A stretch of DNA of 64,000 bases from Acuticoccus mangrovi (GTDB lineage: Bacteria; Pseudomonadota; Alphaproteobacteria; Rhizobiales; Amorphaceae), in contig NZ_JAEKJA010000021.1 of NCBI RefSeq assembly GCF_016411865.1, positions 1 to 64,000 on the forward strand. Direction: 5' to 3'. The notes beneath the pieces were generated by a model that saw only the letters and a program-made list of their open reading frames with translations, did not search any database and was not told where the DNA came from. How positions within the stretch are numbered: position 1 is the stretch's first letter; each line of letters starts with the position of its first letter. Position numbers and translations under genes: made by a program. Positions 13,806 through 50,558 of this stretch are shown here, piece after piece.

Positions 13806-13837
13806 TTCGGGGGGAGCGGTCGAAGCTGGGATGGGGA

Positions 13838-15208: not shown

Positions 15209-15249
15209 GGAGACGGGCGGGGCCCAATGCGCAATATCGGTCCGGCGGG

Positions 15250-15822: not shown

Positions 15823-15968
15823 GCCGGTTGTCTCCGATCGTCTTGCCACCTCGACGCACCATAGCGTCACAATTCGGCCATGGTCGAGCACCCCTCGACA
15901 GAGCGATCGATAACGCCTATCAAAATGGCAGCTCCAGTAAAGGCAACATCAATGCGCGACATCACGTC

Positions 15969-17896: not shown

Positions 17897-17917
17897 CGGG
17901 CCCCGCTTCGGCGGCGG

Positions 17918-18415: not shown

Positions 18416-18425
18416 GATGGGGACC

Positions 18426-19970
18426 TCAGCCATGAGGAGAGACCTCGGTGGTGGTGACGGGGCGCGCCGGATGCGCGACGACGCCGAGGGCCGGGAAATA
18501 GGCGTCGAGCGCGGCGGTGTCGTCGGCGCCGAGGATCGCGCCGACATAGCCGTCGGGGCGGACGAGGGCGCACTCGCCCGGCGCGAGCCCATAGGCGGCG
18601 GCGATGTCGCCGGAGGTGTCGAGGATGTCGCCGGCGGGGCCGATCACGTGGATGTGGAGGTTCGCGCGCGGGGCGATCGCGCCGTGTCCGCCCGCCTGGA
18701 CGAGGAGCGTCCAGTGCGGTCCCTTGAAGAGGTGGAACAGTCGCGAGGGCTGGCCCGCGGCGCCGTGGAGGCGGGCGTCGGGCGCGCGATCGCCCGCCCG
18801 CAGCCCGCGCCGGCGGTCCAGCGCCTCGACGGTGAGGGGGGAGCCGCGATAGCCGATGTCGAGCTGGCGCACCTCGCGCCCCCGCCGCATCGCGCCCTGC
18901 GTCTGCGCATCGAGCAATCTGGTCGCGAGGCGCAGCATGTCCTCAGCCACGGGGCGGCGCTCGGCCTCGTAGGTCGCGAGGATGTCGTCCCCGGCGCCGG
19001 CGATGACGGCGGCGAGCTTAAAGCCGAGATTGTAGGCGTCCTGCACGCTGGTGTTGAGGCCCTGCCCGCCGGTCGGCGGGTGCACGTGGGCGGCGTCGCC
19101 GACGAGGAGGACGCGTCCCGCACGATAGCGCTCGGCGAGGCGGGCGCTCATCTCGTAGGCCGACGCCCAGGCGACCGATCGGACGGCGATGTCGTCGCGG
19201 CCGGTGCGCCGCGCGAGGAGGGCCGTCAGCCCCGTGGCGGTGAGGTCGACGTCGCCGTCCATCGGCACCGGGCCCTGGATCTGAAAGAGGTCGGTGCCGG
19301 CGAGTGGGGTGATCGAGACCTGCTCGCTCATCGCGCCGCCGCGGGCGAAGCGGTGCGCGAGGCCGCGCGAGAGGCCCTCGAGGGCGACGTCGGCGACGAT
19401 GGCGCGAACCCCGAGCGTGTGGCCCGGAAAGGCGATGCCGAGGGCATGGCGCACGAAGCTGCGCCCGCCGTCGGCGCCGATCAGCCAGCCGACGCGGAGG
19501 GTTTCGGTGCCTTCGGCGGACGTGATGCGGGCGGTGACGCCGTCCCCGTCCTGCTCGAAGCCGACGAGCGTGCGGCCGGCCTCCACGTCGACGCCGAATT
19601 CGCTCAGGCGATCGCGCAGCAGGCGCTCGGTCACGAACTGCGGCACCATCAGCGGCATCTGGTAGGGCTCGGCCGGCGTCGGCTCGGCGGGCTCGGCCAT
19701 CGCGGCGTCGGTGACACTGCCATCGTCGTGATAGGTGCGCTGGGGCGGGTAGCGGCCGCCGGCGGCCACGGCTTTGTCGAGCACGCCGAGATCCTCGAAG
19801 ATCTCCTGGGTCCTCGGCTGGATGCCCTTGCCGCGCGAGCCGGGGAAGGGATCCGCGGCCTTGTCGATCAGCCGGAAGGATATGCCGCGACGCGCGAGGT
19901 CGATCGCCAGCGTGAGGCCGGCCGCACCCGCGCCGCAGATGAGTACATCCGCGGCAAGACGATTTGTCAT
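18426..19970 (-). CDS. FAD-dependent aromatic-ring monooxygenase (PheA/TfdB family)
   Basis: A 514-residue class A flavoprotein monooxygenase. It has the N-terminal dinucleotide fold VLICGAGAAGLTLAIDLARRG (about residues 9-29), the DG motif in GWLIGADGGRS, and the FAD ribityl motif VLLVGDAAHVHPPTGGQGLN. A thioredoxin-like C-terminal domain (about 400-510) is typical of the family. It likely hydroxylates a phenolic or polyketide-like aromatic with NAD(P)H and O2; the substrate is unknown. GGAGG lies six bases upstream of 19970. The gene is divergent from a MarR gene with a duplicated operator between them, so induction by the substrate is likely. Confidence 0.92.
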   Translation of the reverse strand: MTNRLAADVLICGAGAAGLTLAIDLARRGISFRLIDKAADPFPGSRGKGIQPRTQEIFEDLGVLDKAVAAGGRYPPQRTYHDDGSVTDAAMAEPAEPTPAEPYQMPLMVPQFVTERLLRDRLSEFGVDVEAGRTLVGFEQDGDGVTARITSAEGTETLRVGWLIGADGGRSFVRHALGIAFPGHTLGVRAIVADVALEGLSRGLAHRFARGGAMSEQVSITPLAGTDLFQIQGPVPMDGDVDLTATGLTALLARRTGRDDIAVRSVAWASAYEMSARLAERYRAGRVLLVGDAAHVHPPTGGQGLNTSVQDAYNLGFKLAAVIAGAGDDILATYEAERRPVAEDMLRLATRLLDAQTQGAMRRGREVRQLDIGYRGSPLTVEALDRRRGLRAGDRAPDARLHGAAGQPSRLFHLFKGPHWTLLVQAGGHGAIAPRANLHIHVIGPAGDILDTSGDIAAAYGLAPGECALVRPDGYVGAILGADDTAALDAYFPALGVVAHPARPVTTTEVSPHG

Positions 19971-38734: not shown

Positions 38735-38753
38735 TGGCGGAGCCGGAGGGATT
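38735..38753. repeat. Left attachment site (attL core)
   Basis: TGGCGGAGCCGGAGGGATT, identical for 19 bases to 50466-50484, the 3' end of tRNA-Ser (CCA, discriminator, acceptor stem and part of the T arm on the minus strand). The match stops at the next base on both sides, as expected of a crossover core. Confidence 0.92.
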
Positions 38754-38811
38754 ACGATTATCGACATAAGCCGCTGATATTCAATGGATACCCCGCTCTT
38801 TAAGCTCTATC

Positions 38812-38850
38812 GTGCCTAACGTAGTGCCTAATATTTTGCAGTGCGTAACG
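38812..38850 (+). promoter_or_regulatory. Left integrase arm-type repeats
   Basis: Three direct copies of a 10-mer: GTGCCTAACG (38812-38821), GTGCCTAATA (38824-38833) and GTGCGTAACG (38841-38850). The same 10-mer recurs near the other end of the element in the same orientation (50324-50354), as arm-type integrase binding sites do. Confidence 0.7.
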
Positions 38851-38859
38851 GACTCGCGT

Positions 38860-39447
38860 TCATGGAAAGTTCTTTCCGTTGTCCACAGATGGATCTCTCG
38901 CGCGCTTACGTGCTGCACATAGCCGCCCAGCTGCCCGTTGTCGCTCGCGTCGGCAGCCGTCGCATATCCGGCGCCGGCACTGCGTCGCTTCAGGGATAGG
39001 CCCATCGCAATCCACGCATCGCAGAGCCGCCAGCGCCTCGGAGAGCGGCGGTTGATCACGGCTTGCCCGCTTCCGATCGTACTCGGCTCGCCGTCCGCAG
39101 GCCCGGCTGCAATAGATGGCATCGCTCCGAGTGCCGGTGAAGGTCGTGCCGCAATGGGCGCATGATCGATTCGCGCGCGCTCGCCGCCGCTCCTCCGACT
39201 CGACCGCGGTGTTGAAGACGCTCGCCGCCCGCGCACGGCAGCGCCCGCTACAATATTTCGCGTCGTTGCGCCGTGGGGTGAACACCTCGCCGCAGCGTGG
39301 ACAGGTGCGAGGCACCGCAGGATGGTGCCGCCGGTAGTGCGCCCGCGCGGCGCATCGACGGCTGCAATAGCGTCGATTGCTGGCCGTCGTCTGGATCGCC
39401 GTCCCGCACCACTCGCACACGTCGTCGGGCAGGTCGTCGAGGTTCAT
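38860..39447 (-). CDS. Tandem zinc-ribbon protein (four C2C2 units)
   Basis: A 195-residue basic protein with four successive zinc-ribbon units: CEWCG...YCSRRC (from about residue 11), CPRCG...YCSGRC, CAHCG...YCSRAC, and a variant CVDCD...ICDGC. Each has C-x2-C, about 14 residues, then C-x3-C (C-x2-C in the last). The spacing and Arg-rich linkers suggest nucleic-acid binding. The start at 39447 overlaps the stop of the next zinc-ribbon gene (ATGA). It is the distal gene of the satellite head operon. I do not recognise a named family. Confidence 0.75.
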   Translation of the reverse strand: MNLDDLPDDVCEWCGTAIQTTASNRRYCSRRCAARAHYRRHHPAVPRTCPRCGEVFTPRRNDAKYCSGRCRARAASVFNTAVESEERRRARANRSCAHCGTTFTGTRSDAIYCSRACGRRAEYDRKRASRDQPPLSEALAALRCVDCDGPIPEATQCRRRICDGCRRERQRAAGRLCAARKRARDPSVDNGKNFP

Positions 39448-40070
39448 GCCTGCCGCCGCATCTCGCGCTGCGTGGCGTAGAAGCACGCCGAGCCGCAATA
39501 TCGTTGGTCCCGCTTCCGGCTTCGGTACATCGTCCCGCACCGCTCGCAGGCCCGTGCCGGCGCACGATCACGATAGGCCGCATCGGACGCTGCACGCTGC
39601 GCTCGCGCCTCGTCGCTCGTGTCGCGTTCGCGACGGCTGGTGTGCCACGCGGCCGCGCACACGGTGCTGCAAAACTTATAGTGATGGCCCTCCAGCGGCC
39701 CGCGGCACCGGAGGCAGTTCTCGCGCTCGATGGGCAGGGCGCCGTCCTGGGTCCATTCCGGCTGGCCCTCCTTCCATGATGGCCGGGTGGCGCCGATCAT
39801 CGCCAGCGCGCGGGACACAATGTCGGCGGCCGCTGCGTCGGCCTCCTGCCACGTCCATCCCTCGGTGCAGAGGCCGGAACGGATGCCGTGACGGCAGGAC
39901 GCCTCGAACGCGAACCGGGACGGTGCGCCGGCCTCGAACCCCGCCTTCATGATCTCGGCCACGTTGTCGATCATGCGCCGCCGTCTGGCGTCGTTGAGCT
40001 GCCGCTGCTTCGGCTTGGCCGTCTTCTTGGTCTCCCGCTTTGGCGGCGACCAGGGGACCCGAGCAAGCAT
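39444..40070 (-). CDS. Zinc-ribbon protein of the satellite head operon
   Basis: A 208-residue protein with a basic N-terminus (KRETKKTAKPKQRQ), a central alpha-helical region, and two C-terminal zinc ribbons: CLRCRG...FCSTVC and CERCG...YCGSAC, the same type as in the downstream gene. It starts one base before the portal gene stop and overlaps the next gene by ATGA, so portal and both zinc-ribbon proteins are made together. A packaging or DNA-binding role is possible; function unknown. Confidence 0.72.
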   Translation of the reverse strand: MLARVPWSPPKRETKKTAKPKQRQLNDARRRRMIDNVAEIMKAGFEAGAPSRFAFEASCRHGIRSGLCTEGWTWQEADAAAADIVSRALAMIGATRPSWKEGQPEWTQDGALPIERENCLRCRGPLEGHHYKFCSTVCAAAWHTSRRERDTSDEARAQRAASDAAYRDRAPARACERCGTMYRSRKRDQRYCGSACFYATQREMRRQA

Positions 40071-40071
40071 G

Positions 40072-41154
40072 TCATTCCCAGTCGATGAACTTGAAGCTGT
40101 CCTCGATCGCCTGCGGGTCCAGCCCCGCCTCCTTTGCCTGGGTGAGTGCTTGGACCATGGTGGCGAAGGCGCGCGCTCGGCCGCCGGCATCGAACGCCTG
40201 CGTCGGTCGAACTACGTCCATCGTGATGGGTGTTCCCAATTTGTTGGTGGCCTCCTCGGCCATGAGTCCGACCATGGGCTGGAGGACCCATTGCGCCAGG
40301 TGCCTCTGGGCCTCGCGCACGAGGGGGCCTTGCGCGTTCGTCGCCCACATCGCCGGCAGCACGCCGAAGGCTGCGAAAATGCTGCTTCGCGACGCCTCTA
40401 GGGTCTCCAAGGCCATGCTCTTCGCCATGTCGGGCGTGAGGTCGTTGGGCCTCCAGTCTTGCGCGGGAGCCGGGCCACCGGCCGCTGACACGGCCACCGA
40501 TTCGCGCACCAGAACGCGGCCTCGCGAGCCCCTGAAGGAACGCTGCATCCGGTTCATGCCGGCTTCGTCGTGCTCCGGCAACGGGACGATTTGAGAGCCA
40601 AGCGGAGCGAATTCGTAGATCTCTCCGAGGGCGGTTTCGAGGGCGTGGAGGAGTCCTGCAGAGAGCCGAGCGCGTCGCAGCGGGGCCGATCCGTACCAGG
40701 GCGCGACCATGTCCACCGCGGTTCGGAAGTGCAGCACCTCGGCCGCCAGCGCCGTCTCGGTGTGGCCACCGCCGGCATCAGGGATGGAGAGGCGATAGGC
40801 CCGTGGTGTTCCGTCTCGCGTGGACACCTCCCAATCCGTGGCCGGTGCCAGGTTATCCTCCCGGATAACCCAAACCGCCTCGCCGCGCAGGGCCAGGGAG
40901 CGCGCGGTAGCCGCCATGACCGAGTGGTTAATGAGGTCTGTGCCCACAATATCGGCGAGCGCGAGGCCCGATTCCCACATGGTGACGCAGGTCTGAACCG
41001 TGCCCGTCAGCTCGGCCATTCCGCGGGCGCCGCTAATGTACGCCTCGCGCGCCGCGATGATCTCGGCGGTGAAGCCGGAACCGCTGGAGCGGGTCTCGCG
41101 AGATGTCCTCAAATCTGATGACATCTCCTCGCGCTTTTGCCAGGGCCACCTCAT
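40072..41154 (-). CDS. Phage portal protein (HK97-type)
   Basis: A 360-residue protein. It has the early VQTCVTMWESGLALADIVGT core, a middle VLHFRTAVDMVAPWYGSAPLRRAR segment, and the conserved LEASRSSIFAAFGVLPAMW helix region typical of HK97-family portals, which form the dodecameric DNA channel at one capsid vertex. It is slightly short (usual 380-430). The start at 41154 (MRWPWQKREEM) overlaps the stop of the connector gene. Here the portal follows capsid and protease, the reverse of the usual portal-protease-capsid order. Confidence 0.8.
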   Translation of the reverse strand: MRWPWQKREEMSSDLRTSRETRSSGSGFTAEIIAAREAYISGARGMAELTGTVQTCVTMWESGLALADIVGTDLINHSVMAATARSLALRGEAVWVIREDNLAPATDWEVSTRDGTPRAYRLSIPDAGGGHTETALAAEVLHFRTAVDMVAPWYGSAPLRRARLSAGLLHALETALGEIYEFAPLGSQIVPLPEHDEAGMNRMQRSFRGSRGRVLVRESVAVSAAGGPAPAQDWRPNDLTPDMAKSMALETLEASRSSIFAAFGVLPAMWATNAQGPLVREAQRHLAQWVLQPMVGLMAEEATNKLGTPITMDVVRPTQAFDAGGRARAFATMVQALTQAKEAGLDPQAIEDSFKFIDWE

Positions 41155-41693
41155 GCGGTCGTCCTCCGATATGGGCGAAGAAGATCCGCTGCCCCGCTGT
41201 TGCGCAGCGCATCGGCCATCCACGACGGCGAGCGACGGTGTGCGATCGAAACGGAGCCCGCGGTGACGGACTCGGACATGACGCCGGGCTTACCGGGCGT
41301 GGCCGCCATGAACTCGGCAAGGCGTCGGAAGGCCTCGCCTACCACCTCGGGAAGGTCGCCGCCGCCAACCTCACCAGTGAAGCGGTAGGCCTTGCAGCTC
41401 GGGAGGCAGAAGCCGCCGAGTGGCGTCGGCGACAGTTCCACCGCGGTCCAATCGTCCTCGCAGTCCCACACCTCCACGGTGCTGATTGTCGCGGGCGTCA
41501 GCGGCGGTACCCATCCGCCGGGACCTTCGACGATCCAAGCGACGGTGCGCGCGGACCACCGGTGGACGATGTACGCCTCGATGCGCTGCCATAGCATCGC
41601 CTCATCGAGCGCGGCGGCGGCGGTAGAGAGCGTCAGCCCATGGTCAGGCCATGACGTCGGGACGCCTTCGGTCTGTTTGATCGTCTCGGCCAT
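41151..41693 (-). CDS. Head-tail connector/adaptor protein (gp6-like)
   Basis: A 180-residue protein. The centre is beta-rich (VEVWDCEDDWTAVEL), followed by a helix PEVVGEAFRRLAEFMAA and a C-terminal LLRPYRRTTA, the usual ending of HK97 gp6-type adaptors. Such rings attach below the portal. GGAGG lies five bases before the start at 41693, which also overlaps the protease stop as TGATG. It is longer than most gp6 proteins (about 100 aa), so the call is moderate. Confidence 0.65.
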   Translation of the reverse strand: MAETIKQTEGVPTSWPDHGLTLSTAAAALDEAMLWQRIEAYIVHRWSARTVAWIVEGPGGWVPPLTPATISTVEVWDCEDDWTAVELSPTPLGGFCLPSCKAYRFTGEVGGGDLPEVVGEAFRRLAEFMAATPGKPGVMSESVTAGSVSIAHRRSPSWMADALRNSGAADLLRPYRRTTA

Positions 41694-42337
41694 CACAGCC
41701 TCCACCGGTTGAGAAGGTGGCGCGGGCGGGGGGAGATGATCCCCATTGGGTTTATCTCCCAGCTCCGGCCTTCCTCGGCGCCTTCCTCCTCCTTGGCCAT
41801 CGCCTCGCGGTATGCCGCTACCGTGACAAGGGATAACTCATAGAGGAGCGCAGCGAAGATGGTGCGGATGAGCGCCGTGCCCTCGGCAGGGTCCTCTTCC
41901 GTCACCTCCTCAGCCTTGGGGACAGCGCGCGGTGGCGGAATCCGAAAGCCGGGACTGATGCCCCGGATCAAGCCGCTATCGAACGCCGCCGCGAAGTTCC
42001 GCCCATAGGGCGCGTCTAGGATTTCCGGCGAGATGTCAGCCTCGAAGGTCAACGCCGCGTCGGTGTCTTTCAGCTTCAAGGTGCCATTGGCGCGAGAGGC
42101 GAGCGGCCGATCATAGCTGTGGCCGACCAGGAGGTGGATTTCCTCCTCCGGCCGTTCGACCCGGTAGGCGAAAGCCCGAGGGGCAATCCGCTCCTTGCGA
42201 GGCCGCCCACCATTACGCCCGCCGTCGCTCATGACAGCGTTCGAGTTGTACGGGAACGACCCCGTGAGGCGGCGCCCACCGCCCCGCGAGCCGCGACGCA
42301 GTTCAAGTTCTCCGATGGCGCCGCCGTACAGCATCAC
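41693..42337 (-). CDS. HK97-family prohead protease
   Basis: A 214-residue capsid maturation protease. The catalytic histidine is in LLVGHSYDRPLAS and the catalytic serine in LYELSLVTVAAY. Residues before about 45 are Gly/Arg-rich and atypical, so an internal start is possible. The start overlaps the capsid stop, so the two are translated together. Substrate would be the N-terminal delta domain of the adjacent capsid protein. Confidence 0.88.
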   Translation of the reverse strand: MMLYGGAIGELELRRGSRGGGRRLTGSFPYNSNAVMSDGGRNGGRPRKERIAPRAFAYRVERPEEEIHLLVGHSYDRPLASRANGTLKLKDTDAALTFEADISPEILDAPYGRNFAAAFDSGLIRGISPGFRIPPPRAVPKAEEVTEEDPAEGTALIRTIFAALLYELSLVTVAAYREAMAKEEEGAEEGRSWEINPMGIISPRPRHLLNRWRL

Positions 42338-43584
42338 TGAATCCCGCTGATGATCTCAAGCTGGGAAGCGCGGGCCACGGTCACATCCATCGTCGCCAGC
42401 GCCGTGATGCGAAGACCGCCGGACTGAGCGTCGCTGAAGGGGTCGCGGATCATGTCCACAGCGCCCCAGGTGCCGACGAAGATCGGCGCGACACCGCCCG
42501 CCGAGGTGGTGAGCAACCCAACACTTTCGGCCGGATCACCGGACGGCGCCGCGAGCGCGTTCGTGGTCAGGACCGTGTTGCCGATCTTCGCGGCGATGCG
42601 GTCCCACTCGGAGATGGCGAGGCCGGTGATCAGATCGTCCGTGGCGTCCCACACTTCCGGGCGGAGCATCAGCCGGACGCCCGCCGGGCCGGTGGCCGAG
42701 TTGGCGAGCATGAAGCGCAGCACCGCGCTACGGAAGGCCGCCCAGTCAGGGGCCGCCCCGATGTCGGTGTTGGTGATGCCGTAGGTCGCCGCCCCGGTGA
42801 TGACGCCGAGCGGTTCGCCATCGGCGCCGGAGCCCAGGAACACCACCCGATCCATTTCCACCGCGATCGCCGCGTTCATGTCGCGCCGTACGGCCTGCTC
42901 CAGCGCCTCGCCGGACTGCTTCAGCGCCTTGCGGGTGATCCTCATCTGAACGCCCAGCGTGTGGTCAGGCGACAGCGCATGATCGGTCGTGGCGTAGGCC
43001 GAGGGCGAGGCAACATTGCCCGTCTCCGACGATTGCCAACCCACGGATGCACCCGCGGTAGCAACCGGCCACTCGACGGAGCCGGAGCCGATGTTGATCA
43101 TGCTCGCGCCCATCCGCCCGGCCACCGAGTCGGGGAATAGGCGATCGATGATCGGGCGCGTCTGCATCGGGTCCGGAGTGCCGGTCGAGACCGTTTCGCC
43201 CGCGCGGAGTTCGAGTGCCTGCCACGGCACCGGTACGCCGCGATATCCGTTGGCGCTACGCAGCTCCTGTACCACCTCAGCGGTGCGGCCTTCGAGCTGG
43301 CGCCCCTCATCCAGGTAGCGCGCCACCTGGCGCATCTCGAAGCCAGCCACGAGGTCCGCGTATTCGCGCTCGCCGCGGGTCTCCAGCTCGGCACCAGCCT
43401 CGCGCCGCTCCTCATCCTCGGCGATCAGAGCCGCACGGTAGCGAGTCTCGTTCTGGCGGAATTCGAGGTCCAGCGTTTCAATCTGCCGGGTCTCGTCTTC
43501 ACTCGGATTGTCGTTCGCCACCAGCGGGGCGAGCGCCTGCCTGATCTCAGACTGTCGGCGCTGGATCTTCACAGAAGTCAGCAT
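42334..43584 (-). CDS. HK97-family major capsid protein
   Basis: A 416-residue capsid protein. Residues 1-110 are charged and helical with coiled-coil character (delta/scaffolding domain removed by the protease). The HK97-fold core follows (residues about 130-416), with SVEWPVATAGASVGWQSSE, TLGVQMRITRKALKQSGEALEQAVRRDM and the C-terminal RITALATMDVTVARASQLEII. GAGG lies ten bases before the start, which overlaps the end of the HNH gene by 38 bases. Confidence 0.9.
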   Translation of the reverse strand: MLTSVKIQRRQSEIRQALAPLVANDNPSEDETRQIETLDLEFRQNETRYRAALIAEDEERREAGAELETRGEREYADLVAGFEMRQVARYLDEGRQLEGRTAEVVQELRSANGYRGVPVPWQALELRAGETVSTGTPDPMQTRPIIDRLFPDSVAGRMGASMINIGSGSVEWPVATAGASVGWQSSETGNVASPSAYATTDHALSPDHTLGVQMRITRKALKQSGEALEQAVRRDMNAAIAVEMDRVVFLGSGADGEPLGVITGAATYGITNTDIGAAPDWAAFRSAVLRFMLANSATGPAGVRLMLRPEVWDATDDLITGLAISEWDRIAAKIGNTVLTTNALAAPSGDPAESVGLLTTSAGGVAPIFVGTWGAVDMIRDPFSDAQSGGLRITALATMDVTVARASQLEIISGIQ

Positions 43585-43870
43585 CGTCTAGTTCCTCACG
43601 TAGGAGCCTCGTCCACGCGAGGCGTTGGGGGTTGGGGAGAGAGCGCCCCTGTTCGAGGCAAGTTTTTCGGGAGTGACAGGGCACGCACAGCGCCTGGAGG
43701 TTGGCGGGGTCCCACGCGCGTTCGGGATGTGTCCGAACCGGGTGACGGTGATCCACTTCCAGCCGGCCGCGAGCGCCGCACTCGACGCATTGGAACCCAT
43801 CCCGCCGAAGGATGTCCCAGCGCAGCCTCGCCCATCGTTTGGAGCGGGTGATGTGAGCGGAATGCCTCAT
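43547..43870 (-). CDS. HNH endonuclease
   Basis: A 107-residue HNH nuclease. A zinc-binding CVECG is followed by the HNH core LEVDHRHPV, NLQALCVPCH and a final SRKT. HNH proteins encoded beside TerL assist cleavage during DNA packaging in many HK97-like phages. The start at 43870 overlaps the terminase stop as ATGA, and the 3' end runs 38 bases into the capsid gene in another frame. Confidence 0.9.
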   Translation of the reverse strand: MRHSAHITRSKRWARLRWDILRRDGFQCVECGARGRLEVDHRHPVRTHPERAWDPANLQALCVPCHSRKTCLEQGRSLPNPQRLAWTRLLREELDDADFCEDPAPTV

Positions 43871-45372
43871 GCCCAAAAGACCCTCCGGGCCGGCTGAGAC
43901 CGGGCCGTCATGCGCGCCCCTTCGGCCACGGCTAATACTGTCGCACTCGCCGCATCGATCCGACCGTTACTTCTCGCCTTGGCAAGTTTCATGTTGTTTG
44001 CAGGATCACGAAGTACAATGGCATCCGCGAAGGCGCTGCGGAGTAGTAAAGACGGGAGGGACACAACCTTGCCGTCGAAAGCCGCGCGCTGGAACCGCTC
44101 GCAGTCCTCACCGCCGTCCTTGAAGCCGAACCCACGCCACGTGACGGGCGTCCTGATGCCGACCGCGTCCATCGCCTCGCCCAACTCGGATTGGCGATAC
44201 CGGTCAGCCAGGATTGCCGCGATGCTTTCGCCGGCAACGTGCTGCATCACCACCTTGAGCCATGGCGCCACCGGGACCGTTTGGTCACCGAGAGCTGCCA
44301 GCTCGCCCCGGTCCAGCATCTCGACGTAGCGGCTGGACACGCCGTCCCGCTGCCCCCTGTCCAGCAGGGAGGGCTTAGAGGGGAACCAGCCGAGGGTTTC
44401 GAGGCGGTGGGTCTCCGGCCAATAGTAGGCCGCCGCCGACATGCTGGAGGAGCCGCCGAGGTCGATCCCGATCACGCACGGGCCGGAGCGCGGGGGCACG
44501 TCCTGCGCCTCGCATTGCAACCACTCGTCCACAGTCAGCAGGCAATCACGGTTCTCGGCGGCGACGCGTTCGTTGCGGTGGTAGAGCCGGTAGCTCGTGA
44601 GGGTAGATCCACCGCGAGCGATGGCGCGCCGAGCCTGCGCCTCCAGCCACTCAAGGCTTGCGCCGATGCCGCCCTTGGCACCCGGGTTGGCGATCAGGAG
44701 GCTTTCGCGATCGTCTGCAGGGAGAGCCGGAGCGGGTCGGTGCTCCTGGACGTAGACCCCCTCCTGGGGCTCATCCAGCCAACGGCTGAACGGGTGCGCG
44801 TCGTCGCTCGCGCTGGTGCTGATGATCAGCGCCTTGCCGTTCCTCTTGCCGAGGCCGGTGAGCAGCGCGTGCTCCAGCGCATCGCCCTTGTCGAGAGCCC
44901 AATGTCCCCGTTCATCCATCAGCACGAAAGTCGGTGACGTGCCGAGGGCCGATTTGCCGTCTGCGGCGAGCACGCGAATCTCATGCTCGTTATCGAGGGT
45001 GACCGAGAGGATCGGCGAGCGCCGGAACTGGAGCCGGGCGCGTATCTCGTCCGGGAGCGAGCGAGCCAAACCTTCGATGTACTGCCACGCGACGCGGCCC
45101 TGATCGCGCGTGCGTGCCGCTACCAGGATTTCCCGCCGGGGCTGATCATCCCAAACGCCTAGGAGAGCACCTAGTGCGAGGCCGGCCGACAGCGCCGTCT
45201 TGCCGTTGCCGCGTCCGACGCTGAGGCAGGCCACGTTCACGTCGTTGGACAGCGCGCCCTTGATAAACTGCCGCTGGAACGGAGCGAGCTTCAGAGGCCG
45301 GCCCGCCATCGGTCCTTCTGGGATCTCCAGCGAGGTCAAGAAACGGGTTGCGAGTGTCGAGGGGGTTGCCAT
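43867..45372 (-). CDS. Phage terminase large subunit
   Basis: A 501-residue packaging motor. The ATPase domain has Walker A SVGRGNGKT (residues 51-59) and Walker B FVLMDE (149-154). The nuclease domain begins near GIDLGGSSSMSAAAYYW. The start at 45372 overlaps the stop of a 33-codon micro-ORF as TGATG. No small terminase subunit is recognisable nearby, so either an unrecognised small gene supplies it or a helper does. Confidence 0.9.
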   Translation of the reverse strand: MATPSTLATRFLTSLEIPEGPMAGRPLKLAPFQRQFIKGALSNDVNVACLSVGRGNGKTALSAGLALGALLGVWDDQPRREILVAARTRDQGRVAWQYIEGLARSLPDEIRARLQFRRSPILSVTLDNEHEIRVLAADGKSALGTSPTFVLMDERGHWALDKGDALEHALLTGLGKRNGKALIISTSASDDAHPFSRWLDEPQEGVYVQEHRPAPALPADDRESLLIANPGAKGGIGASLEWLEAQARRAIARGGSTLTSYRLYHRNERVAAENRDCLLTVDEWLQCEAQDVPPRSGPCVIGIDLGGSSSMSAAAYYWPETHRLETLGWFPSKPSLLDRGQRDGVSSRYVEMLDRGELAALGDQTVPVAPWLKVVMQHVAGESIAAILADRYRQSELGEAMDAVGIRTPVTWRGFGFKDGGEDCERFQRAAFDGKVVSLPSLLLRSAFADAIVLRDPANNMKLAKARSNGRIDAASATVLAVAEGARMTARSQPARRVFWA

Positions 45373-45473
45373 CACCACCACCCCTCGTAGCGAGAGAGAA
45401 AGACCCAGCCCGCGTACCTGGCTCCCTCCAAGGTGCCGACCATTGGGACCAAATGCGCACTGAGCGCGCTCAT
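45372..45473 (-). CDS. 33-residue micro-ORF coupled to terminase
   Basis: A 33-residue frame starting MSALSAHLVPM and ending SRYEGWW. Its start overlaps the stop of the head-closure gene as ATGA, and its stop overlaps the terminase start as TGATG, so it fills the gap exactly and keeps ribosomes moving between the two genes. It is aromatic-rich at the C-terminus. It may be a coupling leader or a small protein; no family recognised. Confidence 0.5.
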   Translation of the reverse strand: MSALSAHLVPMVGTLEGARYAGWVFLSRYEGWW

Positions 45474-45832
45474 CGGCGAGCCTGCAGGGTGAACGTCGCG
45501 TTCGCCGGGTCGGTGGTGATGTTGATGATGTTGTAGGTGAGCCCATCCACTGTGACCGTCTCGGACGAGGTCGGGACGATGGAGAGCGTGGTGGCGAGGA
45601 CGACGATCTTCACGTCGTTCTGCTGGATCAGCGTTCCGTCCACCACGTCTTGATCCCACTCGTCCCGCCAACCACGGCACGGGTATTCGGTGGGCACGGG
45701 ATCGGTTGGCGGGTCCCAGGGGTTCGCAGGCTCGCCGCCTTCCATGCGCGTGACGGTCACGGCGTACGGCACACCCTCGGCTTCGAGGGCGGCGGCAATC
45801 TCAGTGGCGAGCGGTCCGACCAGGAGCGACAT
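45470..45832 (-). CDS. Phage head-closure/head-tail joining protein
   Basis: A 120-residue protein. The N-terminal helix (LATEIAAALEAEG) and the C-terminal VDGLTYNIINITTDPANATFTLQARR-like beta hairpin pattern resemble head-tail stoppers that plug the connector. It is the first gene of the leftward head operon; the phased GCTATCA array lies 88-175 bases upstream of its start. No strong ribosome site is visible before 45832. Confidence 0.6.
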   Translation of the reverse strand: MSLLVGPLATEIAAALEAEGVPYAVTVTRMEGGEPANPWDPPTDPVPTEYPCRGWRDEWDQDVVDGTLIQQNDVKIVVLATTLSIVPTSSETVTVDGLTYNIINITTDPANATFTLQARR

Positions 45833-45920
45833 GGCTATATCCGTTGGTGCGGTACCCTAATACCACTTAGTCTGCTATGGTTCAAGATAAATTTGAGGTA
45901 TCCACATGCAGGAATAGAGC

Positions 45921-46007
45921 GCTATCAGACGCTATCAATCGCTATCAATCGCTATCATAGCAAATGCTATCTACTGATATGCTATCATATGCTATTGCGC
46001 GCTAGCG
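45921..46007. repeat. Helically phased GCTATCA array
   Basis: GCTATCA occurs at 45921, 45931, 45941 and 45951, exactly 10 bp apart. Variants follow at 45966 (GCTATCT), 45981 (GCTATCA), 45991 (GCTATTG) and 46001 (GCTAGCG), so the spacings are 10,10,10,15,15,10,10. More half-matches lie at 45874, 46026 and, inverted, 46035. The array lies between the divergent head operon and the rightward HTH gene. It looks like a multimeric operator or replication-origin iterons. Confidence 0.85.
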
Positions 46008-46048
46008 TGCGCCCGCCTATCTTGTGCTAGCATATGATAGGAGGTGCT

Positions 46049-46564
46049 ATGGTTCTTGTCCAAGCGAATGCCCGCGTCCCGGAAGAAGCCCGCCCGGTTC
46101 TGCTCGCGGTTGCCGCCCGCCTTCGGGACGAGCCGGACTTCCTGGCCCGCCTCAATGCCCTCTTGGAGGACGACGCCGCGGCTACCCGGTGGGCCGATCG
46201 TTTCGAGGCGCTCGAGCAGAGGATCCAGGCACTGGAGGCGGAGCGGGGGCCGGGCGGGGCGAACAACCCGCACGGTCTTGGCGGTCACTCTGGCAAGACC
46301 GCCAAAGAGATTGTCACCGTTAACAATGTACACGACCGGCCTACCGGAACGTCGGCCGCTGCCGATGGCACCGACTGGAGCGCTCGCGCTGCCGCCATCG
46401 AGGTGTCCTCCGGCGAGGGACGGGGCCGTCGCCTGACAGAAGCCGGTTCCGCCCTGTTCGATGAAATGGCCGGCGCGGGTCTTAGCGCACAGGACATCGC
46501 AAAAACCCTGGGGATGACGCGGCCCTCTGCGGCTTCGCGCCTCAAAAAAATCGGAGGAGGCTGA
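46049..46564 (+). CDS. Putative DNA-binding protein with C-terminal helix-turn-helix
   Basis: A 171-residue protein. The N-terminal half is helical (ARPVLLAVAARLRDE, then FEALEQRIQALEAE with coiled-coil spacing). The middle is a Gly/Asn-rich linker. The last 30 residues (LSAQDIAKTLGMTRPSAASRLKK) form a helix-turn-helix. AGGAGG at 46039-46044 supports 46049. It is the only rightward gene of the satellite and starts just behind the phased GCTATCA array, making it the best candidate for the array-binding regulator or initiator; this is inference. Confidence 0.65.
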   Translation: MVLVQANARVPEEARPVLLAVAARLRDEPDFLARLNALLEDDAAATRWADRFEALEQRIQALEAERGPGGANNPHGLGGHSGKTAKEIVTVNNVHDRPTGTSAAADGTDWSARAAAIEVSSGEGRGRRLTEAGSALFDEMAGAGLSAQDIAKTLGMTRPSAASRLKKIGGG

Positions 46565-47040
46565 GGCCGTCGCTCCCCCGTTTTGGGGAGCGGCACCGCC
46601 TTTGGGCGCCGACGCTTATCACCGTGCAGTTTTTGTTCTTCCCTGCTGAACGATGGAAGGAGCGGTGGTGAGGACGCACCACTCCCTTGCAGGGGAGTGA
46701 GCGCGTCCTTTCAGTCCTGAACGACGGAGCCGTCGCGTATGGAGCCTGACGTGCATCGGATCAGTGAGGGCCGGCGGGGGGCTTGCGCCATAACCGGCAG
46801 GGACGGGGCTGGCCTGTCGTCCCATGCTCACTGCCACTCAATTCCAGCGGCGTCCCACGTCGCCGATCCGACGACGGCGTGGGTTCGATGTCTCCATCTT
46901 CCGAGCGGTGGCGGTATCCCGCGCACTATGCGGTATCCCGCGGGTTAGGGGTTGATTCGAAAAAGTGCCCGGTGGCCGGTTGGGGTCCTTGTCCCCCTGT
47001 GAGCGGCCAGACGATATGGTGGGCTATGGAGGGGCGCCGC
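46565..47040. other. Convergent non-coding region with hairpins and a direct repeat
   Basis: No supportable gene. Directly after the HTH gene lies a hairpin CGCTCCCC/GGGGAGCG (46573-46595), a possible terminator without a T-run. A second perfect hairpin CACTCCC/GGGAGTG is at 46680-46686 with 46693-46699. The 13-mer GCGGTATCCCGCG is repeated at 46911-46923 and 46930-46942. The region separates the rightward HTH gene from the leftward early operon and could hold an origin or a packaging site. Confidence 0.5.
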
Positions 47041-47262
47041 CTACTTGGCGGGCGGCGTCCAAACGAACTTGTTCTCGCGCGTCAGACGGGCAAAACCTCG
47101 CTTCATGAAGTGCATGCCGAGCTTCAAGCCGAGCTTCTCGCGCCCCTCGAAGCGGCTAACCTCACCCGCAACGGCTGCGTTGCCGAGTTCGATAGCGCTC
47201 ACCTCGCGGCGGGATATGAGGAGCTTGAGCGCCTGCCTCTCTCGTAGATCACGCCTGCGCAT
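47041..47262 (-). CDS. Small basic hypothetical protein
   Basis: A 73-residue basic protein (RRRDLRERQALKLL, later KLGMHFMKRGFARL) ending FVWTPPAK. It may be a small winged-helix-like protein, but no family is recognised. Its start overlaps the stop of the upstream small gene as TGATG, supporting it as a real member of the satellite early operon. Confidence 0.55.
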   Translation of the reverse strand: MRRRDLRERQALKLLISRREVSAIELGNAAVAGEVSRFEGREKLGLKLGMHFMKRGFARLTRENKFVWTPPAK

Positions 47263-47519
47263 CAGCCGGCGTCTCCGTCCACCTTGCCGAGGAAGCCGCG
47301 GTCGGAAAGCTCAAGCCGGCGGCGGTTCATCTCGGGATAACTGAGGCCGGGAATGATCTCCGACGGCCCCTTGGTCGGCTGGATGCGGATGCGCCACAGA
47401 CCGACGCTGTCGGGGTCCGGCTCGACCACGAACGTGTCGCGATCACTCGGGCCACGAAGCGTCTTCCGACCGGCCTTGAATGCCGAGGCCTCGGCAGCGA
47501 GCTTCTTGTGCAGGGTCAC
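47262..47519 (-). CDS. Small hypothetical protein, GTG start
   Basis: An 85-residue protein. The GTG at 47519 overlaps the stop of the HNH-like gene as GTGA and is preferred over upstream ATGs that lie inside that gene. The sequence contains a beta-rich VVEPDPDSVGLWRIRI followed by a helical end. No family recognised. It is coupled on both sides within the early operon. Confidence 0.55.
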   Translation of the reverse strand: MTLHKKLAAEASAFKAGRKTLRGPSDRDTFVVEPDPDSVGLWRIRIQPTKGPSEIIPGLSYPEMNRRRLELSDRGFLGKVDGDAG

Positions 47520-47848
47520 GCCGCTTCCTCCCGCTTCTCTGCGTGGAGGCGTTGGTGATGCGTACGGCATAACCAGCGGATCGCGAGCGGCCGCGTGTGG
47601 TCGTCATGGTGCGCGTCCGCCGGCTCGGCCCCACAGATCTCGCAGGGCTTGCGGTTGATGATGCCACGGCGGATCGCAGACCGGACGGCGTTGTGCGCCC
47701 AGAGGGCGAGCGGGTTCGCGGCGTTCCATTTCGCTTGCGATGAGATGGTGTCGGGGCTATCTTTCGCTCCGACGGTTGCTTTGCTGTCTCGATCTGCCCG
47801 GTTGCCGTCTGCCAACGGCGCCGGGCCCTTCACTTCCTCCTCCGTCAT
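47516..47848 (-). CDS. HNH-like small protein
   Basis: A 110-residue protein. The C-terminal half has CEICGAEPADAHHDDHTRP and WLCRTHHQRLHA, a compact zinc-bound HNH-like fold common in small phage proteins. The N-terminal 40 residues are polar and probably disordered. The start overlaps the stop of the upstream gene as ATGA. It may be a nuclease or only a structural zinc protein. It is distinct from the HNH beside terminase. Confidence 0.7.
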   Translation of the reverse strand: MTEEEVKGPAPLADGNRADRDSKATVGAKDSPDTISSQAKWNAANPLALWAHNAVRSAIRRGIINRKPCEICGAEPADAHHDDHTRPLAIRWLCRTHHQRLHAEKREEAA

Positions 47849-48087
47849 GCGGCACCGCCCTTGGTTGCCGCATGGTATTCGGCTAGGAGTGCGTGAAAGA
47901 CCAAAACAGAGTCGACGAGGTCAATGCCGCCCCGCACTAGTGGATCGAGTTCGTCCGCGCTAAGCCCGTCCGCGGCGATCTTTTCGGAGGCAGCCAGGTA
48001 AAAGCGAACCCGACTTTCGAGAACGTCGAACTCGTCAACGAGGGCCATCACCGTCGGCGCTGGCTCGGTCTTTTCGGTGTCAGCCAT
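47845..48087 (-). CDS. Small helical hypothetical protein
   Basis: An 80-residue acidic, helical protein (VMALVDEFDVLESRVRFYLAAS). The start at 48087 overlaps the stop of the AlpA-type gene as TGATG and its stop overlaps the HNH-like start as ATGA. No family recognised. Confidence 0.6.
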   Translation of the reverse strand: MADTEKTEPAPTVMALVDEFDVLESRVRFYLAASEKIAADGLSADELDPLVRGGIDLVDSVLVFHALLAEYHAATKGGAA

Positions 48088-48329
48088 CACGCGGCCTCCA
48101 CCATGTTGCGGCGGGACGCGCGGCTGGCCACCCAAGCTTCCAACTCGGCGACGATGAGGCCCTTGCGGCCGGGCGAGCATTCGATGGGCTTAGGGAAGGC
48201 GGGATCGGTGTCGATCAGCTTATAGCCGGTCGAGCGGCCGACGCCGACCATGCGGAAACCGGCGACCAGGGGAACAACGAGAGGCTTCGGCGCCTCCGTG
48301 GCTCGGTAGGTTTCCATCTGGAAGGTCAT
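48087..48329 (-). CDS. AlpA-family/excisionase-like transcriptional regulator
   Basis: An 80-residue protein with the AlpA/MerR-like winged helix: FRMVGVGRSTGYKLIDTDPAFPKPI followed by GLIVAELEAWVASRASRR. AlpA proteins activate integrase or excision and start induction in P4-like and PICI satellites. GGAG lies six bases before the ATG at 48329; another ATG at 48335 has poorer spacing. It heads the chain of TGATG/ATGA-coupled small genes. Confidence 0.85.
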   Translation of the reverse strand: MTFQMETYRATEAPKPLVVPLVAGFRMVGVGRSTGYKLIDTDPAFPKPIECSPGRKGLIVAELEAWVASRASRRNMVEAA

Positions 48330-48393
48330 GTCCATCTCCGTTCAAAGGGATGACATGATTAGTATCCGCGACAGCCTAGTACGGCATTCCGAT

Positions 48394-49134
48394 TTAAGAG
48401 AGAGGCTTATCTCGTAAGCGGCAGCCTCGCTCGTATGCCTCTTGTGCTCGACTTGGTGCCTTGTCTTGGCCAGGCCAAAGCACTTCGGTCATCTCCTTCC
48501 ATGTGATTGCCGGCTCCTGTTCTTTAGCGTCGATGGCACGTAGAGCGGATATCCGATCTACCTTCCGGTTGCGGCGCCGTTTCGGGGGGGCATCATCTTC
48601 CTCCCCATCCTCGTCAGCCCACCCGATTAGATATTCACGCGCCTTTTCGAGTTGCTTCTTAAGCGGCATGCGCCGGTCAAATGTTACCGCAGTTAGTTCG
48701 TGTTCGTCGTATTCGGGAAATCCAAACTCGAACCCGTCGTACTCTGCAAACTCGACATAGATTACTTGGCTTTCCCCGATTGCCGGGTTGAGTAGACTGT
48801 ACATGCCGTATTTCGCCGGGTCGGGCGCGTCTATTGAAAAGCCTGGCATGTCGGGATGCTCGAATGCAATTTCTTCAAGTCGCCCACGCTCTTCCTCTGT
48901 GAAAACGCCTAATTCGCTTTCGGGGACAACCATACCAGTTGCAACTGCATGCGCGATCAAATGCTTCTGACTCCAGGTGATTGACTTTCGTATAGGAGCC
49001 GCCACCTCCTCGAAATCACGTCTATATTCATCTCTGCGGCGTAGAAATTCCCACCGCCATCGCTTCTCGGACCATCCTTCGACATAACCGTAATCGTCGA
49101 GGTCTCGCCAATCTGGAGTGCCCCAATCCATCAT
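48394..49134 (-). CDS. DUF6499/transcriptional-regulator-like domain protein
   Basis: A 246-residue protein. The N-terminal PDWRDLDDYGYVEG and RWRWEFLRRRDEYRRDFEEVA match the short N-terminal domain seen in alphaproteobacterial transcriptional-regulator-like proteins of mobile elements (W-x-FLRRxxxYRRDF). The C-terminal part has basic PPKRRRNRKVDRISALRAIDA and a WKEMTEVLWPGQ segment. The start at 49134 overlaps the integrase stop as ATGA. Function unknown; a regulatory role is inference. Confidence 0.65.
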   Translation of the reverse strand: MMDWGTPDWRDLDDYGYVEGWSEKRWRWEFLRRRDEYRRDFEEVAAPIRKSITWSQKHLIAHAVATGMVVPESELGVFTEEERGRLEEIAFEHPDMPGFSIDAPDPAKYGMYSLLNPAIGESQVIYVEFAEYDGFEFGFPEYDEHELTAVTFDRRMPLKKQLEKAREYLIGWADEDGEEDDAPPKRRRNRKVDRISALRAIDAKEQEPAITWKEMTEVLWPGQDKAPSRAQEAYERGCRLRDKPLS

Positions 49135-50318
49135 CGCTCGGCCTCTGAACTGATCGGAGACACCTTGTCCCAAGAGATGCAGTGCATGGCCCACTGCTTC
49201 ATCAGCGCCCGCCGTCGCGTGAAGTGGTCGGAGCGGTTATAGGCAGCGGCCACACGGTCCCCAGCAGCGTGTGCCAACGCCGCCTCGCGAACCTCAATCG
49301 TCGCGTCGGTGCACTCCGTCACCCATGTAGAAAAACTGGAGCGAAAACCGTGGACGGTCAGCTCGTCCAACTCCATGCGTTTCAAGACGGCGCCGAGCGT
49401 CATGTCCGACATGGGCCGACCGCGTTTCGCACCGGGGAACACCAGCTCGTCTGGCTCGCCCTTGGGCAGCGCTTCGAGGATGGCGAGGGCGGCCGGTGAG
49501 AGGGGGACCCGGTGCTCGCGCCCAGCCTTCATCCGATTGGCGGGAACAGTCCACACCGCCTTGTCCATGTCGATCTCTGACCACGTTGCACCGCGGACCT
49601 CGCCGCTCCGAGCCGCGGTCAGAACGGTGAAGGTGAGGGCGCGCGCTGCCGTCCCTCGCCGAGCGGCGAGCGCCTTCATGAAGGTCGGTACCTCCCCGTA
49701 GGGCATGGCCCCGTGGTGGCCGCGCCTGAGTTTCCCGGCGGCGGGGAGGACGGCGGAGAGATGGCCGCGCCAGATGGCTGGATTGATGCCGTCCCGCCAT
49801 CCTCGCGCACGGGCGAAGTCTAGGACACGTTCTATCCGGCCGCGGACCCGAGACGCGGTCTCGGCCTTCGTGTGCCATATGGGTGTTAGGCACGCGAGCA
49901 CGTCGTTGGTATCGATCTCGGCGACGCTCTTATCGGCCATCGGCTTGCAGTAGGTGCCGAGTGTGTTGCGCCACTGCTGCCGGTGCTTCGGGTTCTTCCA
50001 GCCCGCCTCCATGCTGTCGACGAACTGCTCGGCCGCCTCGGCGAATGTGGGGACGGTGGGTGCAGCCTCGGCCTTGGTGAACGGGTCCTCGCCGTCATCC
50101 ATTGCAATGCGGATTCGCGCCGCAGCCTTGCGAGCGTCGGCGAGCGTCACCTTGGGGAAAGCCCCGAGGCCCTTTTCACGGCGCCGGCCGCCCTTGTTGG
50201 TGATGAACTTCCAGCCGCGCCACCCGCCCGGCTTCACATGGAGATAGAGCCCTCCACCATCGGCGTGGCGTCCTTCGTCGAGGGCCTTCACCTGGGTCGC
50301 TGTGAGTCTTCCAGCCAT
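49131..50318 (-). CDS. int: P4-type tyrosine integrase
   Basis: A 395-residue site-specific recombinase. It has an N-terminal DUF4102-type arm-binding domain (LTATQVKAL, then GGGLYLHVKPGGWRGWKF), a core-binding SAM-like domain (about 90-180) and a catalytic domain with R237, H323-x-x-R326, H350 and nucleophile Y360, all intact. It lies 147 bases from the att core in tRNA-Ser, and three repeats at 50324-50354 sit directly upstream of its start, where integrase binding could also autoregulate the gene. Confidence 0.95.
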   Translation of the reverse strand: MAGRLTATQVKALDEGRHADGGGLYLHVKPGGWRGWKFITNKGGRRREKGLGAFPKVTLADARKAAARIRIAMDDGEDPFTKAEAAPTVPTFAEAAEQFVDSMEAGWKNPKHRQQWRNTLGTYCKPMADKSVAEIDTNDVLACLTPIWHTKAETASRVRGRIERVLDFARARGWRDGINPAIWRGHLSAVLPAAGKLRRGHHGAMPYGEVPTFMKALAARRGTAARALTFTVLTAARSGEVRGATWSEIDMDKAVWTVPANRMKAGREHRVPLSPAALAILEALPKGEPDELVFPGAKRGRPMSDMTLGAVLKRMELDELTVHGFRSSFSTWVTECTDATIEVREAALAHAAGDRVAAAYNRSDHFTRRRALMKQWAMHCISWDKVSPISSEAER

Positions 50319-50323
50319 CCCGC

Positions 50324-50354
50324 GTGCCTCATGTGCCTAACGGGGTGCCTAACG
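50324..50354 (+). promoter_or_regulatory. Right integrase arm-type repeats
   Basis: GTGCCTAACG occurs at 50333-50342 and 50345-50354, with a weaker copy GTGCCTCATG at 50324-50333. The 10-mer matches the repeats near the left end (38812-38850) in sequence and orientation. The repeats overlap the leader of the integrase gene. Confidence 0.7.
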
Positions 50355-50465
50355 CAAACCCCGGATATGGACACATAATTGCGAACGCGGATGGACCGCC
50401 GCAAGAGGCAAGGCCCGGGATTCCTGGGGCTTTTGGATGCGAGTGGACGGCATTGGAAGGGTAGA

Positions 50466-50484
50466 TGGCGGAGCCGGAGGGATT
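50466..50484. repeat. Right attachment site (attR core)
   Basis: This is the second copy of the 19-base direct repeat, forming the 3' end of tRNA-Ser including the encoded CCA. The intact tRNA lies on this side, next to the integrase gene. Confidence 0.92.
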
Positions 50485-50558
50485 CGAACCCTCGAGACGG
50501 GTTTACCCCGCCTAACGGTTTAGCAAACCGCCGCCTTCAGCCTCTCGGCCACGGCTCC
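50466..50558 (-). tRNA. tRNA-Ser(GCT)
   Basis: A 93-nt class II tRNA. The acceptor stem GGAGCCG pairs with CGGCTCC, with discriminator G and encoded CCA at 50466-50468. The anticodon GCT lies at 50522-50524 within loop TTGCTAA. A long variable arm is present, and the T loop reads GGTTCGAATCC. It is the integration target of the satellite and is restored intact at this end. Confidence 0.96.

What the first reader, a model, noticed from the sequence alone, without database searches (positions are those of the whole stretch)
38735..50484. A capsid-forming, tail-less phage satellite in an alphaproteobacterium
The element has perfect att repeats in tRNA-Ser, an intact P4-type integrase, an AlpA-type switch and a full HK97-type head set (TerL, HNH, capsid, protease, connectors, portal) in only 11.75 kb. 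There is no tail, lysis or replication gene. This fits the capsid-forming PICI lifestyle, in which the satellite builds its own capsid and uses a helper phage's tails. Such elements are best described in Enterobacterales; one with unrecognised accessory genes here would widen the group.
Basis: partly seen in the sequence, partly recalled or inferred. Interest (0 to 1): 0.88.

Follow-up and report, generated by a model that had tools for sequence, protein, structure and literature searches.

The report
Capsid-building, tail-less phage satellite
This 11.75 kb genomic island, one of many similar ones in alphaproteobacteria, carries the genes to build and fill a virus head but no tail genes, so it most likely spreads by borrowing tails from other phages.

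Summary
The element lies exactly at 38735-50484, between perfect 19-nt repeats, one being the 3' end of tRNA-Ser(GCT). Integrase, TerL, HNH, HK97-type capsid, S78 protease, portal and head-closure genes are intact; the AlpA match is weak; no tail, lysis or replication family was matched. It does not look like a decayed prophage. The same TerL-HNH-MCP-protease-(neck)-portal block occurs in 112 fetched relatives (94 with the full set), in no other order. Thirteen copies bounded by tRNA repeats span 9.6-13.7 kb, and one metagenomic contig closes to a 10,093-bp circle. Head and packaging genes are under purifying selection (dN/dS 0.11-0.41). No record of 50,697 phages matches over 80% of the capsid; the portal has no match there (E 0.01). 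Weak matches of two tail-facing proteins fall mostly in alphaproteobacterial phages, and a sister species has a tailed prophage with distant homologues. The capsid tree rejects joining the E. coli cf-PICI-type Sp7 group (AU p 0.007); the TerL tree does not (p 0.61). Best reading: an alphaproteobacterial lineage that works like cf-PICIs. Helper-dependent transfer is inferred, no TerS was recognised, and the primary cf-PICI papers were not available, so priority is unchecked.

The parts
38735..38753 (.). att repeat (19 nt), far end of the element
   Evidence: perfect copy of the tRNA-Ser 3' end
50466..50558 (-). tRNA-Ser(GCT); its 3' end 50466-50484 is the other att core
   Evidence: ARAGORN; repeat
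49131..50318 (-). tyrosine integrase, 395 aa (P4-type label recalled)
   Evidence: PF22022, PF00589, PF13356, phrog_1; 89% aa identity to G005 copy, dN/dS 0.10
48394..49194 (-). regulator-like protein; start probably nearer 49134 (inferred)
   Evidence: PF20109 3e-8
48087..48335 (-). AlpA/excisionase-like regulator, weak match
   Evidence: PF05930 0.0011, below cut-off; phrog_66 0.0026; homologue in the G005 element
47845..48180 (-). conserved small protein of unknown function
   Evidence: no family match; tblastn matches in G005 (38%) and G003 (51%) elements
47516..47848 (-). endonuclease-like protein
   Evidence: phrog_2340 endonuclease 5e-19
47041..47570 (-). two small unknown ORFs (47262-47570, 47041-47262)
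   Evidence: no family match
46034..46564 (+). HTH-like protein on the + strand; possible regulator or TerS analogue (guess)
   Evidence: HTH matches, all below Pfam cut-offs; tblastn matches in L014 and L040
45470..45832 (-). head closure protein Hc1 (tail-facing)
   Evidence: phrog_161 1e-20; PDB stopper protein gp12, 10lj_A, E 0.006; 14 weak phage matches, 9 in Rhizobium/Sinorhizobium phages
43867..45372 (-). terminase large subunit, 501 aa (the longer ORF to 45546 overlaps Hc1; start inferred)
   Evidence: phrog_9 1e-54, PF03354 6e-9 (on the longer ORF); dN/dS 0.11
43547..43876 (-). HNH endonuclease between TerL and capsid
   Evidence: PF01844, phrog_589
42334..43584 (-). HK97-type major capsid protein, 416 aa
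   Evidence: PF05065 8.5e-15, phrog_617 6e-20
41693..42337 (-). S78 prohead protease
   Evidence: PF04586 2e-15
41151..41705 (-). neck/head-tail adaptor-like connector
   Evidence: no sequence family; AF2 model pLDDT 89.7, top fold matches phage neck proteins, best E 0.005; alternates with Ad1 across the family: 48 / 41 / 0 both
40072..41223 (-). portal protein; start probably near 41154 (inferred)
   Evidence: PF04860 2e-13
39444..40190 (-). conserved domain plus zinc-ribbon-like cysteines; start probably near 40070 (inferred)
   Evidence: tblastn match in 17 of 112 relatives; alignment of 8; dN/dS 0.47
38860..39540 (-). zinc-finger-rich protein, start uncertain
   Evidence: phrog_1271 1e-14, stretch 27-158

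Best explanation
It is an intact, integrated phage satellite of the capsid-forming type. Shown by sequence: it sits in tRNA-Ser with att repeats, carries an integrase, and encodes packaging (TerL, HNH) and an HK97-type head with neck proteins, but no recognised tail or lysis gene. Inferred: a tailed phage induces it; the integrase excises it as a circle; replication uses host or helper functions (several relatives carry their own primase or initiator); it makes its own capsids and fills them with its DNA; its head-closure protein mates with the helper's tails; helper lysis genes release the particles. It belongs to an alphaproteobacterial lineage with a fixed head-gene order, MCP before protease before portal, the reverse of HK97, phage 16-3, the host's GTA-like cluster and the G004 prophage.
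For: Exact att repeats and intact genes. Same block and order in 112 relatives, 94 with the full set. Thirteen att-bounded copies, spans 9.6-13.7 kb, in Ser, Arg, Phe, Cys, Glu, Thr and Met tRNA genes. A circle of 10,093 bp with an exact 141-bp overlap. In 13 of 14 complete elements the largest ORF called is TerL (504-662 aa), in one a 576-aa minus-strand ORF where neck and portal are expected; no tape-measure-sized gene. Scans of 65 chosen accessory ORFs of nine elements showed no tube, tape measure, baseplate, holin or lysin family (25 of 26 families shown, all 18 shown). dN/dS 0.11-0.41 for head and packaging genes. Capsid: 32 of 50,697 phage records, none covering 80%; portal: none. Hc1 and gp10-like matches lie mostly in alphaproteobacterial phages (9 of 14, 9 of 13), and a sister-species tailed prophage has both.
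Against: No induction, particle or transfer data. No TerS recognised. AlpA below Pfam's cut-off. No replication gene matched in this copy. Hc1 matches in phages are weak (E 1e-4 or worse, none over 80% of the protein), and the window's Hc1 has no direct match to the G004 prophage at E 0.05. No matching prophage in this host by three markers: PF10145 tape measure, PF04883, G004-type major tail candidate; the only other HK97 capsid in the genome is in a GTA-like cluster. An Hc1 homologue was recognised in only 21 of 112 relatives. TerL is not satellite-specific: 94 phage records match, 76 of them over 80% of its length. Two relatives gave a stop inside a matched range.
Confidence: 0.76

Rival explanations
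1. A decayed prophage that lost its tail, lysis and replication genes by deletion.
For: It has an integrase, an AlpA-like gene and a head module like a prophage, and no recognised tail genes.
Against: The same tail-less block recurs in 112 loci and at several tRNA sites with similar size; genes open and under purifying selection; no phage record carries this capsid over 80% of its length, and the portal has no match there; none of 139 contigs tallied exceeds 18.4 kb, though I take IMG/VR proviruses to be trimmed by software (recalled).
Confidence: 0.07
2. A capsid-forming satellite whose tails come from the resident gene transfer agent (GTA) rather than from a phage.
For: The host genome has a GTA-like cluster, the only other place with an HK97 capsid match. 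The GTA-like Ad1 is about 35% identical to Ad1 of relatives L034 and L062 and matches 11 loci.
Against: The GTA-type head closure has no match in the 112 relatives. The window's Hc1 is of the phrog_161 type, found in this genome only in the element itself.
Confidence: 0.07
3. A tail-less autonomous virus or domesticated particle that needs no tail.
For: No tail gene recognised in complete copies; a circular form exists.
Against: Neck proteins that serve tail attachment are kept under selection (Hc1 0.35, neck 0.41) and some copies add a gp10-like protein; no lysis gene found.
Confidence: 0.06

Closest known systems
E. coli cf-PICI-type element Sp7 of O157:H7 Sakai (NC_002695.2 1594711-1610171; its identity with the EcCIEDL933 type is recalled, not tested)
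   Same: Small island with integrase, HK97-type capsid, protease, portal, connectors, TerL and a gene annotated 'holin' that matches the window's HNH (E 6e-4); no tail genes annotated; MCP before protease before portal.
   Different: Packaging genes after the head genes instead of before; has primase, SSB and TerS; TerL 23% identical over 324 aa, capsid without a blastp or phmmer match at E 1; capsid tree rejects a joint clade (AU p 0.007), TerL tree does not (p 0.61).
Streptomyces satellites MulchRoom/MiniFlayer (PMC10690885, passages read)
   Same: Capsid and packaging genes with helper dependence; MulchRoom's tail length matches its helper's.
   Different: Actinobacterial, scaffold protein, direct terminal repeats, virulent helpers; no sequence comparison run here.
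cf-PISP satellite-plasmid TG54 of Vibrio (PMC13230959, passages read)
   Same: Capsid-forming, tail-less, about 15 kb.
   Different: Plasmid-maintained; capsid groups with gammaproteobacterial cf-PICIs according to that paper.
Fused protease-capsid phages (Arya, Mica, VP882)
   Same: Nearest phage capsids in the tree.
   Different: 24-30% identity; one long capsid gene in place of protease plus capsid (fusion inferred from length), portal before capsid, baseplate genes, 38-44 kb.

Membership tests
cf-PICI | Discrete island with attachment repeats and integrase | tested here: met
cf-PICI | Head set: MCP, protease, portal, connectors (PMC10690885, passage) | tested here: met
   Hc1; neck protein by fold only, best E 0.005
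cf-PICI | TerL and HNH | tested here: met
cf-PICI | Small terminase subunit | tested here: inconclusive
   the only TerS-named match was phrog_4581 to the HNH protein, read as an HNH domain; none to other ORFs in the results shown
cf-PICI | AlpA homologue (PMC10448857, passage) | tested here: inconclusive
   PF05930 E 0.0011, below cut-off; one accessory ORF of the relatives scores 9e-9
cf-PICI | Pri-Rep replication initiator (PMC10448857, passage) | tested here: not met
   none matched in the window; Prim-Pol in G007, AAA_25 or O-like initiators in other relatives
cf-PICI | No tail or lysis genes | tested here: met
   for the window; for relatives, with one gp10-like neck protein in G005
cf-PICI | Capsid groups with a known cf-PICI clade | tested here: not met
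   rejected for the E. coli type; other published clades were not available to test
cf-PICI | Phage induction, own small capsids, helper tails | not testable with these tools
   needs experiment
Decayed prophage | Broken or relaxed structural genes; tailed relatives with the same head | tested here: not met
Gene transfer agent | Head plus tail cluster, no att sites, portal-protease-MCP order (recalled) | tested here: not met
   the element has att and int, no recognised tail; the host's GTA-like cluster lies on another contig

The most novel reading that the evidence does not exclude
A class-wide, independently founded lineage of capsid-forming satellites in Alphaproteobacteria. Its head cassette is conserved while its neck parts (neck protein or Ad1, Hc1 of several types and positions, sometimes a gp10-like protein) are swapped like adapters to fit different tails, phage or even GTA.
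Probability: 0.5. Interest if true: 0.78.

Novelty: new variant of a known kind. Interest (0 to 1): 0.63.

Why it matters
[quoted passage not shown] A large family with its own capsid in Alphaproteobacteria would suggest that tail-stealing satellites arose more than once, and it offers a natural set for testing which head proteins decide the tail that can be borrowed. Named isolates carry relatives (Ponticaulis koreensis DSM 19734, Paracoccus salipaludis WN007, Pseudorhodobacter turbinis S12M18).

Tried and rejected
Empty-site search with the left flank failed because it holds ABC-transporter genes that match in many places; the flanks gave no useful synteny with G005, G007 or G003. The portal as a single query found nothing in IMG/VR. 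The first guess for the E. coli cf-PICI-type element was wrong, the next region held Sp6, and Sp7 was in the one after. The TerL tree did not decide between one and two origins, so independent origin rests on the capsid alone, in a quick tree with long branches; for the AU test HK97 and L127 were dropped from the rows and L126 left out of the cf set. The zinc protein model was poor (pTM 0.36) and was not searched. A PHROGs scan of 47 further ORFs from 12 long contigs showed no tail family among the 25 of 52 families displayed; 27 families were not shown. The 47 were taken by me from 61 non-core ORFs; of the 14 left out, 12 were on the minus strand. The 65 ORFs were also chosen by me: core genes, ORFs scanned before and some at the element edges were left out; one of the 65 matched a 'virion structural protein' family and one or two 'tail completion or Neck1' families (the tool lists counts, not members). 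Literature searches listed no paper whose title or shown abstract describes an alphaproteobacterial capsid-forming satellite; the two primary cf-PICI/SatelliteFinder papers are not held.
Full report
OBSERVATION. The repeat core occurs at 38735-38753 and 50466-50484 and nowhere else in the window; the second copy is the 3' end of tRNA-Ser(GCT). The element is 11,750 bp, found once in the host genome, about 90% coding by my gene list, 65% G+C against 64-67% in the flanks. Integrase, TerL, HNH, capsid, protease, portal and Hc1 match Pfam or PHROGs families. The AlpA match is weak in this copy. The connector 41151-41705 has no sequence family. Its model (pLDDT 89.7) has as best PDB matches Agrobacterium phage 7-7-1 neck 1 (E 0.005, probability 1.00), the T5 portal complex and phage Milano neck proteins, with no match at 0.001 and unrelated enzymes from rank 5 on: suggestive only.

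GENE ARRANGEMENT. From Hc1 (45832) to the far end all listed genes run one way; with inferred starts (TerL 45372, portal about 41154, zinc protein about 40070) most overlap their neighbour by a few bases, as expected of one late operon. One HTH-like protein (46034-46564) is on the other strand.

RELATIVES. The capsid found strong relatives in three other species of the genus (4 of 8 genus genomes counting this one, E below 1e-120; a fourth, G002, only at 4e-5), 8 loci in genome contigs and 23 in IMG/VR, one close match in the plasmid collection (Pseudorhodobacter, 72%), and one further genome among 385 drawn from the class (2 of 385 with the host itself, E 1e-30). So it is frequent in this genus and sparse elsewhere. 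An alignment of 27 capsids found 536 relatives in IMG/VR, of which the best 80 were fetched; two more divergent queries gave 18 and 26 loci. Named hosts are Paracoccaceae, Hyphomonadaceae and Methylocystaceae. Most of the 536 were not seen, and the best-80 cut favours close relatives.

CONSERVED UNIT. In 112 loci (three duplicates dropped beforehand: L019, L187, L035) the order TerL-HNH-MCP-protease-(neck)-portal is complete in 94; the other 18 miss a gene at the tblastn threshold or a contig end; none shows another order (L013 is the same order on a circle). Of 95 loci with TerL, MCP and portal, 48 have the window-type neck protein, 41 have Ad1, 6 neither, none both. Ad1 was recognised as phrog_442 in two members. 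Hc1 stands upstream of TerL in the window and G005, between TerL and HNH in G003 and G007, and after the portal in L013 (my assignment; two of the 65 ORFs match PF05521, members not listed). A homologue of some Hc1 was found in only 21 of 112 loci, so many copies have an unrecognised or missing closure protein.

BOUNDARIES. Of 26 relatives with a tRNA in view, 12 show a perfect repeat of 15 nt or more enclosing the block; with the window that is 13 copies, spans 9,647-11,731 bp for 12 of them and 13,731 bp for one with two integrases. The other 14 gave no repeat; many of these loci are cut short. The Gemmobacter contig L013 ends in an exact 141-bp overlap, so it closes to 10,093 bp; k141 in its name fits the assembler word length. 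No other of the 112 loci has such an end overlap of 25 nt or more, but most are cut stretches. Of 139 distinct IMG/VR contigs tallied, none exceeds 18,341 bp, 71 lie between 9 and 13 kb, 58 below 9 kb, and the median of those of 9 kb or more is 10,624 bp (the 31% outlier L248 and duplicates were dropped). Lengths alone are weak evidence if the proviruses were trimmed.

NO TAIL. In 13 of 14 complete elements the largest ORF called is TerL (504-662 aa); in L065 it is a 576-aa minus-strand ORF lying where neck and portal are expected, taken as spurious. Among 65 chosen accessory ORFs of nine elements, PHROGs and Pfam gave HNH, Hc1, excisionase, HicAB, protease, replication-related and HTH families, one 'virion structural protein', and 'tail completion or Neck1'/HK97 gp10-like matches (the G005 element, by sequence), but no tube, tape measure, baseplate, holin or lysin (25 of 26 PHROGs families shown).

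SELECTION. Window against G005: dN/dS int 0.10, TerL 0.11, portal 0.16, protease 0.17, capsid 0.24, HNH 0.26, Hc1 0.35, neck 0.41, AlpA-like 0.46, zinc protein 0.47. dS is 0.64-1.06 for the first eight, so values are approximate. The last protein (38860-39540) gave 0.71 with a doubtful partner frame and is not used.

ORIGIN. The capsid matches 32 of 50,697 phage records, none over 80% of its length, identity 24-30% in the 30 listed. TerL matches 94 records, 76 of them over 80% of its length, at about 28% or less in the 30 listed, so the terminase is of an ordinary HK97-like kind. The portal has no match at E 0.01. The capsid tree puts all 29 family rows on one side of a branch (SH-aLRT 97; 85, not starred, after removing HK97 and L127). 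An AU test rejects a clade of these with the Sp7-type capsids (p 0.007; L126 left out of the cf set); the program warns of long branches. The cf-like rows themselves are not one group. The TerL tree does not reject a joint clade (p 0.61). Both lineages have MCP-protease-portal order, whereas HK97 and phage 16-3 (annotated) and, by my reading of the ORFs, the host's GTA-like cluster and the G004 prophage have portal-protease-MCP.

HELPER. Sister species G004 has a prophage with a tape-measure match (PF10145) and tail genes read by me from order and length. Its Hc1 is 34% identical to that of the G005 element over 73 aa (E 1e-4) and its gp10-like protein 31% (E 5e-17); the window's Hc1, capsid, portal, protease, TerL and neck protein have no match to it at E 0.05, though its Hc1 belongs to the window's family phrog_161 (E 6e-7). 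A co-resident prophage of G005 also has a gp10-like match (30%, E 2e-4). In phage records the window's Hc1 has 14 weak matches (9 Rhizobium or Sinorhizobium, 4 Pseudomonas, 1 Erwinia) and the G005 gp10-like protein 13 (9 Rhizobium, Sinorhizobium or Paracoccus; best Paracoccus phage vB_PkoS_Pkon1, 38%); Sinorhizobium phage phiLM21 has both close to its tail terminator. The tail-facing parts thus point, weakly, to local tailed phages. This host carries no such prophage by the three markers used. That does not argue strongly against the model: a review reports that none of 17 prophages of the EcCIEDL933 host mobilised it at detectable frequency (PMC11389934, passage).

WHAT IS SHOWN AND WHAT IS INFERRED. 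Shown: anatomy, boundaries, conservation, selection, a circular form in one relative. Inferred: excision by this integrase, induction by a phage, packaging of its own DNA, small heads, helper tails and lysis. Unknown: TerS, replication in this copy, role of the zinc proteins.

NOVELTY. My searches listed no paper on such elements in Alphaproteobacteria, but the primary cf-PICI papers were not readable and cf-PICIs are called widely distributed across Bacteria (PMC10690885, passage), so some may already be on a published list. Hence 'new variant of a known kind'.

Noticed in passing
G000:C12 (L083 approx. 1552-19687): GTA-like head-and-tail cluster in the host genome with portal-protease-MCP order; GTA label by gene order, length and recall.
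   Followed up: partly
L041:7768-8325: The G005 element carries an HK97 gp10-like tail-completion protein, the outermost neck part; tblastn finds it in 3 of 112 relatives.
   Followed up: partly
L013:1-10234: Gemmobacter MAG contig closes to a 10,093-bp circle by an exact 141-bp overlap: an excised or packaged form.
   Followed up: yes
L062:4254-18039: Pseudorhodobacter copy has two integrases within 13.7 kb between 55-nt repeats; perhaps two elements in tandem.
   Followed up: no
L012:4392-5462 and L038:3374-3985: A stop inside the matched range of the portal (L012) and of the zinc gene (L038): broken copies, assembly errors or neighbouring ORFs; not resolved.
   Followed up: no
window 39444-40190 and relatives: Zinc-ribbon-like protein after the portal, matched in 17 of 112 relatives, with a conserved N-terminal domain; a TerS or regulator role is only a guess.
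   Followed up: partly
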